Part shown: positions 31,078 through 34,321 of the stretch, piece by piece
Position numbering within the stretch: position 1 is the first letter of the stretch
How the letters are laid out: every line of letters starts with the position of its first letter
Assembly: GCA_024277725.1 (NCBI GenBank)
Contig: JAJRUP010000231.1
Span: 1-34,321 of the forward strand
Direction: 5' to 3'
DNA from: a bacterium
Lineage (GTDB): Bacteria > CG2-30-53-67
DNA: 34,321 bases
The notes under the pieces: generated by a model
What the model was told of the DNA's origin: nothing
The model's input: only the letters and a program-made list of their open reading frames with translations
The model's database searches: none
Made by a program: the position numbers and the translations under genes

Positions 31078-31164
31078 GCCGGAGTGGTGAAATTGGTAGA
31101 CGCACGGGACTCAAAATCCCGCGGGGGCAACCCCATGCCGGTTCGATTCCGGCCTCCGGCACCA
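31078..31164 (+). tRNA. tRNA-Leu(CAA)
   Basis: Acceptor GCCGGAG/CTCCGGC, anticodon arm CGGGA-CTCAAAA-TCCCG, T-arm GGTTCGATTCC, encoded CCA. Confidence 0.96.
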
Positions 31165-31171
31165 TTTAAAA

Positions 31172-32335
31172 TCAAGCACTTGCACTCTCCGGCAATTCAA
31201 CAACTTTCCCCTTTTCTTCTTTTTGTGCCTGTTGCGTGTCTGTAGCAGTTTCAACCAGGTGCGCCATGCGCTCCACGGCGGCCTTTCGATGTTCAGGAGC
31301 CAGGTGAGCATAGCGCATGGTCATTTCAATGCTCTTGTGCCTCAAAAGGTCTTTCACGGTGTAAATGTCCACACCGTCCATAACCAGCCATGAGGCAAAG
31401 GTGTGCCGAAGGTCGTGGAAACGGAAATTCTCGATTTCAGCCTTCCGGAGAGCCTTTTGAAAGGATTCCCGTATATCCCTCAACGGTGCGCCGGTTTTCA
31501 TCCCTGGGAAGACATGAGGGTTATCGTCAAACTTGGGGAGGTCATCGAGAAGGTCCTGGACCGTCCGGTTGATAGGGATATAAGCATCTTTCCCGTCCTT
31601 TGAGTCCCGGATCTTGATGATCCCCCGCTTCAGGTTCACGTCACGCCACTGCAATCTGAAGACTTCCCCCTTTCTCATGCCGGTGTTCAGAGCCAAGAGG
31701 ACAATCGGCCTCAGAAAGTCGCTGCAGGCCTCCAGGAGCCGCAGCGCTTCGTCTTTGGTGAGGTAGCGGACTATGGTATTGTTCTCCCGATAGAGTTTGA
31801 CCCTCTTGACCGGGTTATCGTGCGTTTTCCCCCACACAACGGCCTTGGAAAAAACGGTCTTCAACAAGGCCAGTTCCCGGTTGATCGTGGCCTTTGCAAC
31901 ACCATCCTTGCTCCTTCTGGATTTATACTTCTCAATCTTCCAGGGAGTGATTTCATTCAAGGGAAGATCCCCGAACACCGGAATCAGGTGTTTATTGCCT
32001 CTGTCTTCGTCATGTGACCAACTTTTCTTGTTGGCACTTGCAAACCGGATATAATCCTTGAAAAAATCCCGGAAAAGGACCGGCTTTTCCGTCTTGGCCA
32101 CATCAAACCGGCCTCGAACAATATCCCCCTGCCGGGACTTCAAGGCCTTCACTGCGTCCTTCTTGGAGACCTCTCCGGCCTTGCCGACCCTCTCCCTGAT
32201 TCTCCGGGTCCCGACATAGTAGGAGATCCACCAGGAGCCGCCTGTCTTTCCTTTTCGGTAAATAATCCCGTTCTCGGTGAGGGTCTTCCCGACCGGCAAG
32301 GTCTCAATCACCTGTTTCGTGATCTTCGGCATCAT
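31172..32335 (-). CDS. Phage-type tyrosine recombinase/integrase
   Basis: Conserved ALNTGMRKGEVFRLQW, FRFHDLRHTFASWLVMDGVDIYTVKDLLRHKSIEMTMRYAHL; adjacent to the tRNA 3' end. Confidence 0.95.
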   Translation of the reverse strand: MMPKITKQVIETLPVGKTLTENGIIYRKGKTGGSWWISYYVGTRRIRERVGKAGEVSKKDAVKALKSRQGDIVRGRFDVAKTEKPVLFRDFFKDYIRFASANKKSWSHDEDRGNKHLIPVFGDLPLNEITPWKIEKYKSRRSKDGVAKATINRELALLKTVFSKAVVWGKTHDNPVKRVKLYRENNTIVRYLTKDEALRLLEACSDFLRPIVLLALNTGMRKGEVFRLQWRDVNLKRGIIKIRDSKDGKDAYIPINRTVQDLLDDLPKFDDNPHVFPGMKTGAPLRDIRESFQKALRKAEIENFRFHDLRHTFASWLVMDGVDIYTVKDLLRHKSIEMTMRYAHLAPEHRKAAVERMAHLVETATDTQQAQKEEKGKVVELPESASA

Positions 32336-32649
32336 TCCTCTCTCAAAGGAAAAAAGTAAGGTCCAACCTGAGGACCTTCCGGCCACTGGGATAAATACCT
32401 GTTGGCGGTCTTTCTCTCCTCTGCCGTCCGGTCTTCCTCCAGGGTCCAGACCTGGACCAGGACGGCGGCCGGTAAGCTCACACCACCGAGCTTTGACGTG
32501 TCGATCACGTCGGCCGGTCCGTAGTCTCCAAACCCGTCGGCGTCCCCGACCCTCAGAACCGGGATCCCGTCCCGAGAGGCGGGACTCTCCGTTGTGAGTC
32601 GTGCCTTCCATCCGTTCCATTTCTCAATTTCCTTGACGATCATATCCAT
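32332..32649 (-). CDS. Hypothetical 105-aa protein coupled to the integrase gene
   Basis: GAGGAGG with 6-nt spacing to ATG 32649; stop overlaps the integrase start (ATGA). Confidence 0.7.
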   Translation of the reverse strand: MDMIVKEIEKWNGWKARLTTESPASRDGIPVLRVGDADGFGDYGPADVIDTSKLGGVSLPAAVLVQVWTLEEDRTAEERKTANRYLSQWPEGPQVGPYFFPLREE

Positions 32650-32761
32650 CGTCTACCTCCTCAAAAAAAAATGCCTGCACGCCTGTGACCCCTGGACCCT
32701 CGGAAGTCCATATCACAGACATGCAGGCATATTTAAGATTCGTTCTTCTTTGTGTGGCCAT
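32624..32761 (-). CDS. Putative 45-aa leader/upstream ORF
   Basis: GGAGG with 6-nt spacing to ATG 32761; MATQRRTNLKYACMSVIWTSEGPGVTGVQAFFFEEVDDGYDRQGN*; overlaps the 105-aa ORF start. Confidence 0.35.
   Translation of the reverse strand: MATQRRTNLKYACMSVIWTSEGPGVTGVQAFFFEEVDDGYDRQGN
32663..32730 (-). terminator. Long hairpin plus U-tract (terminator/attenuator) directly before the 105-aa ORF RBS
   Basis: Minus strand ATGCCTGCA..CTGTGA..GGAC / GTCC..TCACAG..TGCAGGCAT followed by T8-9. Confidence 0.75.
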
Positions 32762-32796
32762 TGAAGGCCTCCGAGGAGTTTGGGGCGATATCCGAC

Positions 32797-32810
32797 TATA
32801 GAAATCTATA
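32797..32810. promoter_or_regulatory. Palindromic operator candidate TATAGA-AA-TCTATA
   Basis: Perfect 6-bp arms covering the minus-strand -10. Confidence 0.5.
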
Positions 32811-32831
32811 AAACTATTATTCTATTGTCAA
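32803..32831 (-). promoter_or_regulatory. Candidate sigma-70 promoter for the leader/105-aa/integrase unit
   Basis: Minus strand TTGACA (32831-32826), 17-bp spacer, TAGATT (32808-32803). Confidence 0.5.
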
Positions 32832-32841
32832 GAGGAAACTA

Positions 32842-32870
32842 TTGACTTAGGAAGTGGCAGACTTTAGAAT
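32842..32870 (+). promoter_or_regulatory. Candidate sigma-70 promoter for the RHH gene
   Basis: TTGACT, 17-bp spacer, TAGAAT; ATG 6 nt beyond the -10. Confidence 0.65.
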
Positions 32871-32876
32871 CTCCTC

Positions 32877-33032
32877 ATGGAAAAGAAACAGTTCAACTCA
32901 ACAATCAACGCAAATGTGTTAAAATCCCTCAAGATTCTTGCTGTCAAAAAGGACCAGAACATCAATCAGATCCTCGAAGAAGCCATCCGGGACCTCCTCA
33001 AGAAGTACGGCCAGAAGGTCGAGAAGTCATGA
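32877..33032 (+). CDS. Putative 51-aa ribbon-helix-helix regulator (below ORF-track cutoff)
   Basis: MEKKQFNSTINANVLKSLKILAVKKDQNINQILEEAIRDLLKKYGQKVEKS*; N-terminal strand plus two helices as in CopG/Arc-type proteins. Confidence 0.75.
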   Translation: MEKKQFNSTINANVLKSLKILAVKKDQNINQILEEAIRDLLKKYGQKVEKS

Positions 33033-33145
33033 TAAGCCCGTCCTCCATGCTGTTCGGCGCAATGGCCAGCAACAAACTCATACCAGCCCCCGAATCGGAC
33101 CCCCTCGACGGAGGTCCTCATAAACCATTCGATATCCCGCCTTAG
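33029..33145 (+). CDS. Putative 38-aa ORF overlapping the RHH stop codon
   Basis: MISPSSMLFGAMASNKLIPAPESDPLDGGPHKPFDIPP*; ATGA overlap with the RHH stop. Confidence 0.35.
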   Translation: MISPSSMLFGAMASNKLIPAPESDPLDGGPHKPFDIPP

Positions 33146-34321
33146 CCCCCATCTGAACGGCGGCGGCAATCCTCTGCTCCATCCCCGGGACGGCCCCCCT
33201 CGCGTCGACGGAGATGTTTTGCACAACGCCCCCCGCCCCATTCGGGACGATAGACCCCGAAGATCTCGGCACGAAAAGCTCAGGTCCTCTCTCTCCGACA
33301 AGATAAGTACTTCCGGCGGCAACAGGACCACCCGAGGCCCTGGCTCCGCCGAATATAGATGACAGGGCAGCTGTACCAATATTCAAGAGAGGCTTCGTCA
33401 CATGCTCCTGTACCTGTATTCTCAAAAGATCTTTTATGATAGAATCCGCAAGATCTCGGAAATTCCATTTCGCTGAGACCATCTGATCCGTAAACTCATC
33501 GCCCCATCCCCTGATTGCCGCTTCAAGCTCTTCAAAGCCCTTTTTCGGCTTTTCCGTCGCCGCCTTGAGATCTTCCCCGGCCTTCCTCGCCGCCCGGCCG
33601 TATGTTTCCAGAGAGATCGCTCCGGCGTCATAAAGCTTCTTTGCTTGAGAGAGTTTCAGGAGGTATTCTTCCTGAGGAGTCAAGAGCAATCTCCGGAGTG
33701 CTTCTCCCTGCTTCTTGAGCCGGTCAATTTCTTTTTTTGAAGGACGCCTTGGGGCGCTATTATCCCCATTAATATAATCATTCCAAGGCTTGTTCACTTT
33801 GGCGATGACAGCCTGCAGTTCTGCCTGTTTTCTCTGGAGATCTTTTTTGACCCGCTGAAATTCCGCTTCCCGATCTTCATCGGACTGCCAAAACTTCCAG
33901 TTAAATTTTCCGATTCCGGTGTGCAGCGACGACAACTCTTCTTTGAGGTCCTCGATATCCGTTTTCAGGTTTCTGATCCGCTCTGTATCGTTTGCTCCAT
34001 ACCCGAAAAACCGTCTCGCCCATGTAGCGGCCTTTTGGAACCCCTCTCCAATATCAATCAGCAATGGAGAAAGTATAGAAAGCGCCCGTGTCATATCTGC
34101 TTCAATGACCTCACGCATGATCGAAAGTTCATCTTTGGCCCGCTCGGCGTTACGGATTATGGATTCGTTGAGTACAATACCCAGTCTATGTGCCTGATCC
34201 TTAAATTCCTGAACACCAGCTTTGCCTTTTCTGAAGAGATTCACAAGGGCAGCCCCTTCAGAATCGAAGGCTTTAAATGCTATTCTCAACTGTTCTGACT
34301 TATCCTTTGTGTTGTGTATAA
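33078..34321 (-). CDS. Phage tail tape-measure-like protein, C-terminal part (5' end outside window)
   Basis: Coiled-coil region, YLVGERGPELFVPRSSGSIVPN, MEQRIAAAVQMGAKAGYRMVYEDLRRGGPIRGLV; frame stays open to 34321, so TTG 34289 is not necessarily the start. Confidence 0.82.
   Translation of the reverse strand, partial: IHNTKDKSEQLRIAFKAFDSEGAALVNLFRKGKAGVQEFKDQAHRLGIVLNESIIRNAERAKDELSIMREVIEADMTRALSILSPLLIDIGEGFQKAATWARRFFGYGANDTERIRNLKTDIEDLKEELSSLHTGIGKFNWKFWQSDEDREAEFQRVKKDLQRKQAELQAVIAKVNKPWNDYINGDNSAPRRPSKKEIDRLKKQGEALRRLLLTPQEEYLLKLSQAKKLYDAGAISLETYGRAARKAGEDLKAATEKPKKGFEELEAAIRGWGDEFTDQMVSAKWNFRDLADSIIKDLLRIQVQEHVTKPLLNIGTAALSSIFGGARASGGPVAAGSTYLVGERGPELFVPRSSGSIVPNGAGGVVQNISVDARGAVPGMEQRIAAAVQMGAKAGYRMVYEDLRRGGPIRGLV

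What the first reader, a model, noticed from the sequence alone, without database searches (positions are those of the whole stretch)
32624..32830. Leader ORF running through a hairpin/U-tract upstream of the integrase operon: possible attenuator
On the minus strand a candidate promoter is followed by a leader with an ORF that has a good SD (GGAGG, 6-nt spacing). The ORF reads through a long interrupted stem (9+6+4 bp) ending in T8-9, i.e. an intrinsic terminator, and overlaps the start of the 105-aa ORF. That ORF in turn overlaps the integrase start by ATGA. The terminator abuts the SD GAGGAGG, and a CTCCTC in the leader (32773-32778) could pair with that SD. A ribosome in the leader ORF would be expected to melt the hairpin, making integrase expression depend on leader translation. 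This architecture is inferred; an insulating terminator with a chance ORF is the plain alternative.
Basis: partly seen in the sequence, partly recalled or inferred. Interest (0 to 1): 0.72.

Follow-up and report, generated by a model that had tools for sequence, protein, structure and literature searches.

The report
Terminator in prophage integrase leader
A very strong transcription-stop hairpin sits between the only recognisable promoter and the first gene of a prophage's integrase operon, so the integrase can be made only when RNA polymerase reads past it; whether a tiny leader gene controls that read-through is possible but unproven.

Summary
The anatomy is real. On the minus strand a TTGACA-N17-TAGATT site (32831-32803) precedes a ~134-nt leader. 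The leader ends in the strongest hairpin/T-tract of the window (19+7 bp, T9 at 32671-32663; -42.5 kcal/mol, z -8). The T9 abuts the SD of a 105-aa gene that overlaps the integrase by ATGA. No promoter-like site lies between hairpin and integrase, so operon transcripts should have to pass this terminator. It should work as a leader terminator (attenuator in the loose sense), and it also shields int from the tail operon now abutting the module.
The specific claim, relief by leader-ORF translation, is only weakly supported. For: the ORF uses the only minus frame open across the hairpin and has ATG plus a 5-nt SD (0.7% of shuffles). Against: codon usage is nearer to non-coding, the CTCCTC anti-SD is ordinary (15% of shuffles), there is no stall motif, and no homologue was found in 193-386 genomes, phages or plasmids. 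Five distant homologues of the 105-aa protein lack the hairpin; only 2 of 27 related integrases have any upstream terminator, both weak. An insulator with a chance ORF stays open. Conservation could not be tested: the module is a singleton here.

The parts
32803..32831 (-). Sigma-70-like promoter TTGACA-N17-TAGATT, predicted start about 32796
   Evidence: consensus match only
32796..32842 (-). Five ATAG repeats across the divergent promoter region; possible operator array for the RHH repressor
   Evidence: >=5 ATAG in 0.07% of shuffles; role inferred
32773..32778 (-). CTCCTC, can pair with the SD of the 105-aa gene
   Evidence: a comparable hexamer occurs in 15% of shuffles
32624..32761 (-). 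Leader ORF, 45 aa, SD GGAGG 32772-32768, reads through hairpin and T9 and overlaps the 105-aa start
   Evidence: codon score nearer to out-of-frame DNA
32663..32730 (-). Intrinsic terminator: 19+7 bp hairpin (32730-32672) and T9 (32671-32663)
   Evidence: strongest hairpin/T-tract in the window
32332..32649 (-). First gene of the operon, 105 aa, uncharacterised phage family ending QWPEGPQ[VIL]; SD GAGGAGG 32662-32656
   Evidence: homologues L030, L032-L035 at 31-46% identity; no Pfam, PHROG, NCBIfam or fold match
31172..32335 (-). Tyrosine integrase, 387 aa, start overlaps the 105-aa stop (ATGA)
   Evidence: Pfam PF00589 5e-34, phrog_1 1e-82
31078..31164 (+). tRNA-Leu(CAA), likely attachment site
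   Evidence: att role inferred from adjacency to the integrase
32877..33032 (+). Divergent 51-aa ribbon-helix-helix (Arc-like) repressor gene; promoter-like TTGACT-N17-TAGAAT ends 6 nt before its ATG (probably leaderless)
33078..34319 (-). C-terminal part of the tail tape-measure gene, same strand as int, directly upstream of the module

Best explanation
The element is a strong intrinsic terminator in the leader of a prophage 105-aa/integrase operon. RNA polymerase starting near 32796 makes a leader RNA of about 134 nt and mostly stops in T9, just before the SD of the first gene. The integrase is made only from the fraction that reads through. Its likeliest effect is to hold integrase at a low level in the lysogen and to stop tail-operon transcripts that come from the same strand upstream. 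The divergent ribbon-helix-helix protein probably represses the promoter. Translation of the 45-aa leader ORF through the hairpin is the most plausible in-cis way to raise read-through, but that step is inferred. Shown (by sequence and folding only): terminator anatomy, its place between promoter-like site and first gene, the open leader frame. Inferred: promoter use, termination efficiency, repressor action, any relief.
For: Hairpin -42.5 kcal/mol, z -8, directly followed by T9, strongest in the window. The only minus-strand promoter-like site near int lies upstream of the hairpin, none between hairpin and int, and T9 abuts the SD. Predicted folding along transcription flips to the terminator once the 3' arm is complete (-36 to -51 kcal/mol). 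Leader ORF with ATG and 5-nt SD in the only frame open across the hairpin, 0.7% of shuffles. Only 2 of 27 related integrases have any upstream terminator, both weak, so this is not a routine feature.
Against: The promoter is a consensus match in a host whose promoters are unknown. No expression data. No homologue of the leader, so no conservation or covariation. The module looks partly decayed (tail operon cut off beside it), so the arrangement may be recent and accidental.
Confidence: 0.6

Rival explanations
1. Leader-translation-dependent attenuator: a ribosome on the 45-aa ORF keeps the hairpin open, so polymerase reads through, and also uncovers the SD of the 105-aa gene. Integrase expression reports translation capacity. 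This is a special case of the best explanation.
For: ATG plus SD in the only open frame, 0.7% of shuffles. The ORF crosses the whole hairpin and ends inside the 105-aa gene. The leader SD region can pair both with the hairpin's apical region and with the downstream SD, both as strong in only 0.7% of shuffles. Ribosomes are known to block intrinsic terminators inside ORFs (PMC5021804).
Against: No homologue of the leader peptide or leader DNA. Codon score -0.12 against 0.30 +/- 0.11 in frame and -0.28 +/- 0.13 out of frame. No run of regulatory codons. In the model a ribosome at the leader start leaves the downstream SD largely paired. The statistics are post hoc.
Confidence: 0.25
2. Plain insulating terminator with a chance ORF: it blocks transcripts from upstream phage genes and the leader ORF is not translated to any purpose.
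For: A tail operon on the same strand lies directly upstream. 13% of shuffles give some read-through ORF. Codon usage is not coding-like.
Against: It leaves the 105-aa/int operon without a visible promoter downstream of the hairpin. In an annotated relative the tape-measure gene is followed by further tail genes, so the tail operon's closeness looks secondary.
Confidence: 0.3
3. The promoter and hairpin make a free-standing small RNA of about 134 nt that acts elsewhere; int is expressed by incidental read-through.
For: Compact promoter-to-terminator unit, very stable 3' end.
Against: No Rfam family reaches its threshold (best SR6 antitoxin 24 bits against 55). No second copy or homologue.
Confidence: 0.06
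4. Relic: the promoter once drove a gene starting at 32761 (for instance an early lytic gene) that was deleted, leaving its first codons fused to a terminator.
For: The prophage is rearranged: the tape-measure gene runs straight into the repressor/int module, unlike the relative.
Against: The layout directly before a good SD and an intact operon is orderly, and no homologue of the leader codons was found to show a lost gene.
Confidence: 0.12

Closest known systems
Transcription attenuation of tet(M) in Tn916 (orf12 leader peptide)
   Same: Leader ORF and intrinsic terminator(s) upstream of a gene whose read-through also affects a mobile element's functions (PMC9154091, and its reference to Su, He and Clewell 1992; the reach into xis/int is from general knowledge).
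   Different: There it responds to translation inhibitors and sits before a resistance gene; here it lies directly before the integrase operon of a prophage, with no known signal, and the leader ORF is unproven.
Ribosome-mediated attenuators of amino-acid operons (trp, his from general knowledge; leucine-rich attenuator peptide in S. aureus, PMC5794164)
   Same: Leader ORF with SD, terminator between promoter and first gene.
   Different: No run of regulatory codons, no stable competing antiterminator found, and the ORF runs through the terminator instead of ending before it.
Intrinsic terminators inside translated ORFs masked by coupled ribosomes (PMC5021804)
   Same: The physical principle that a following ribosome prevents the terminator hairpin.
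   Different: Demonstrated in E. coli, not as a phage integrase control.
Divergent repressor/integrase modules of temperate phages (general knowledge)
   Same: Small repressor gene transcribed divergently from the int operon, with promoters back to back.
   Different: A ribbon-helix-helix protein rather than a helix-turn-helix one, plus a strong terminator in the int leader.

Membership tests
Leader terminator / attenuator (broad sense) | Intrinsic terminator between promoter and first structural gene | tested here: met
   promoter-like site, hairpin with T9, then SD; promoter by consensus only
Leader terminator / attenuator (broad sense) | Read-through is regulated | not testable with these tools
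   needs reporter or RNA data
Ribosome-mediated (leader-peptide) attenuator | Translated leader ORF with start and SD | tested here: inconclusive
   SD and ATG present (0.7% of shuffles) but codon score between coding and non-coding, no homologue
Ribosome-mediated (leader-peptide) attenuator | Mutually exclusive antiterminator or ribosome-dependent switch | tested here: inconclusive
   leader-loop pairing forms in the nascent RNA but loses to the terminator; blocking the 5' arm abolishes the hairpin in the model
Ribosome-mediated (leader-peptide) attenuator | Regulatory codons or stall motif in the leader peptide | tested here: not met
   MATQRRTNLKYACMSVIWTSEGPGVTGVQAFFFEEVDDGYDRQGN by inspection; only run is FFF, set by T9. 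An unknown stall motif cannot be excluded by eye
Ribosome-mediated (leader-peptide) attenuator | Leader ORF, hairpin and T-tract conserved in homologous loci | tested here: inconclusive
   no close homologue found; distant homologues of the 105-aa gene lack it
Known RNA family (Rfam) | Covariance-model score above gathering threshold | tested here: not met

The most novel reading that the evidence does not exclude
A prophage integrase operon gated by a translation-dependent attenuator: leader-ORF translation both opens the terminator and frees the downstream SD, so that integrase is made only when ribosomes follow polymerase closely, layered on repression by a divergent ribbon-helix-helix protein.
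Probability: 0.22. Interest if true: 0.55.

Novelty: new member of a known kind. Interest (0 to 1): 0.3.

Why it matters
If read-through is regulated, this is a second control layer on the decision to integrate or excise, by a route (leader attenuation) for which a search of open papers found no directly comparable prophage-integrase case (the library is incomplete). If it is only an insulator, it is still an example of how a rearranged prophage keeps its integrase silent.

Tried and rejected
Rfam match: none above threshold; SR6 antitoxin at 24 bits is chance. Viral-contig hit L001 for the 105-aa protein: a 19-residue chance match in an AT-rich contig. DNA hits of the leader region in 15 other genomes: fragments of about 22-53 bp at many different parts of the query, taken as chance. 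G317 hit of the leader peptide: two stops inside, E 0.009 per genome among 386 genomes, chance. Frameshift or slippage on T9 fusing leader ORF and 105-aa gene: rejected, the 105-aa frame has a TAG at 32655-32653 just before its ATG. Function of the 105-aa protein from structure: model pLDDT 76, no significant fold match. The second integrase copy (81% identical) ends at a contig edge before its leader, so it gives no comparison. Hairpin as a repeated element: no second copy in the genome. Integrase-based scans of viral contigs gave no close relative.

Full report
Context. The window is a complete contig (C196) of a 2.9-Mb genome in a phylum with only 8 held genomes. Its right end is prophage: tRNA-Leu(CAA) 31078-31164(+), tyrosine integrase 32335-31172(-), a 105-aa gene 32649-32332(-), the leader under study, a divergent 51-aa ribbon-helix-helix repressor gene 32877-33032(+), and the C-terminal 413 codons of a tail tape-measure gene running on the minus strand from the contig edge. 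In the annotated relative Roseobacter phage CRP-6 the tape-measure gene is followed by further tail genes; here it ends 45 bp from the repressor gene, so the prophage has probably been rearranged.

Observation. All elements described are present (see observation check). The hairpin is longer than stated (19+7 bp), followed by T9. Folded alone it gives -42.5 kcal/mol against -18.1 +/- 3.1 for dinucleotide shuffles, z -8, none of 200 as good. It is the strongest hairpin/T-tract of the window in two separate scans. The generic terminator scan did not list it, presumably because it allows no internal loop.

Position. The only minus-strand promoter-like site near int lies at 32831-32803, upstream of the hairpin; none lies between hairpin and integrase. 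T9 ends at 32663 and the SD GAGGAGG starts at 32662. There is no room for a promoter between terminator and first gene. Unless a non-consensus promoter lies inside the hairpin or the 105-aa gene, operon transcripts must pass the terminator. This is the strongest argument that it controls, rather than merely shields, the operon.

Leader ORF. Of the three minus frames only one is open from the hairpin base to the end of T9, and that frame has an ATG with a 5-nt SD. With the hairpin fixed and the upstream leader shuffled, any start codon reading through occurs in 13%, SD>=5 in 1.0%, ATG with SD>=5 in 0.7%. This is suggestive but was tested after the fact. Codon usage against 12 long ORFs of the window, taken as genes, gives -0.12 per codon: 3.8 sd below in-frame segments and 1.3 sd above out-of-frame segments; the 105-aa gene (0.17) and the repressor gene (0.42) look coding.

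Switching. CTCCTC can pair with the SD, but a comparable hexamer occurs in 15% of shuffles, and the leader-SD duplex is matched by 17%. The leader SD region also pairs with the hairpin's apical region (-21.5 kcal/mol, 4.8% of shuffles); both pairings together are matched in 0.7%. Predicted folds of growing RNA use the leader-loop pairing until polymerase passes about 32680, then flip to the terminator when the 3' arm is complete. Blocking the 5' arm, as a ribosome would, abolishes the terminator in the model; blocking only the leader start does not, and leaves the SD largely paired.

Comparative tests. No DNA homologue of the leader was found in the own genome, 193 genomes, phages or plasmids, and no leader-peptide homologue in phages or 386 genomes. 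The 105-aa protein has five distant relatives: one upstream of an integrase in a Bryobacteraceae genome with one small ORF between (L030, 46% identity) and four in viral contigs. None has a hairpin/T-tract upstream. Among 27 related integrases (31-44% identity) only two have any same-strand terminator within 500 nt upstream, both much weaker. So the feature is unusual and not shared at these distances, and close relatives that could test it were not found.

Verdict. A real, strong leader terminator that should gate the integrase operon (0.6). Leader-translation relief is possible (0.22-0.25) but not shown; a plain insulator with a chance ORF is about as likely (0.3). Precedents exist for the principle (PMC5021804; Tn916 attenuation in PMC9154091); searches of open papers for attenuation of a prophage integrase found nothing directly comparable.

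Noticed in passing
32842-32876(+): The divergent RHH gene has a TTGACT-N17-TAGAAT site ending 6 nt before its ATG and no SD: probably a leaderless repressor mRNA, as for lambda cI from PRM (comparison from general knowledge).
   Followed up: partly
32796-32842(-): Five ATAG repeats, three of them spaced 8 bp, across the back-to-back promoters; >=5 in 0.07% of shuffles. Candidate RHH operator array.
   Followed up: partly
33032-33078: The tape-measure gene runs straight into the repressor/int module; in CRP-6 other tail genes follow it. A short frame after the stop (MSLLLAIAPNSMEDG...) may be the cut-off start of the next tail gene.
   Followed up: partly
L010 1492-2175 (G000:C147 4257-4931): A second integrase, 81% identical over 223 aa, lies beside tRNA-Arg(CCT) at a contig end in the same genome: probably a second related prophage whose leader is not in the assembly.
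   Followed up: partly
32332-32649; L030 449-727; L032 3001-3288; L033 481-768; L034 453-728; L035 2917-3201: Uncharacterised small phage protein family with a near-C-terminal QWPEGPQ motif, no Pfam, PHROG, NCBIfam or fold match.
   Followed up: partly
L030 369-461: In the Bryobacteraceae homologue a 30-aa ORF with an SD-like site also overlaps the start of the 105-aa homologue, but without any hairpin; may be chance.
   Followed up: no
L006 about 1390-1500; L012 1-70: Two integrases in one genome (G094) share a similar leader that could form a hairpin (GGGGATAGGGAA...CCTATCTTTCCCC) just upstream; no Rfam match. Possibly another integrase leader element.
   Followed up: no
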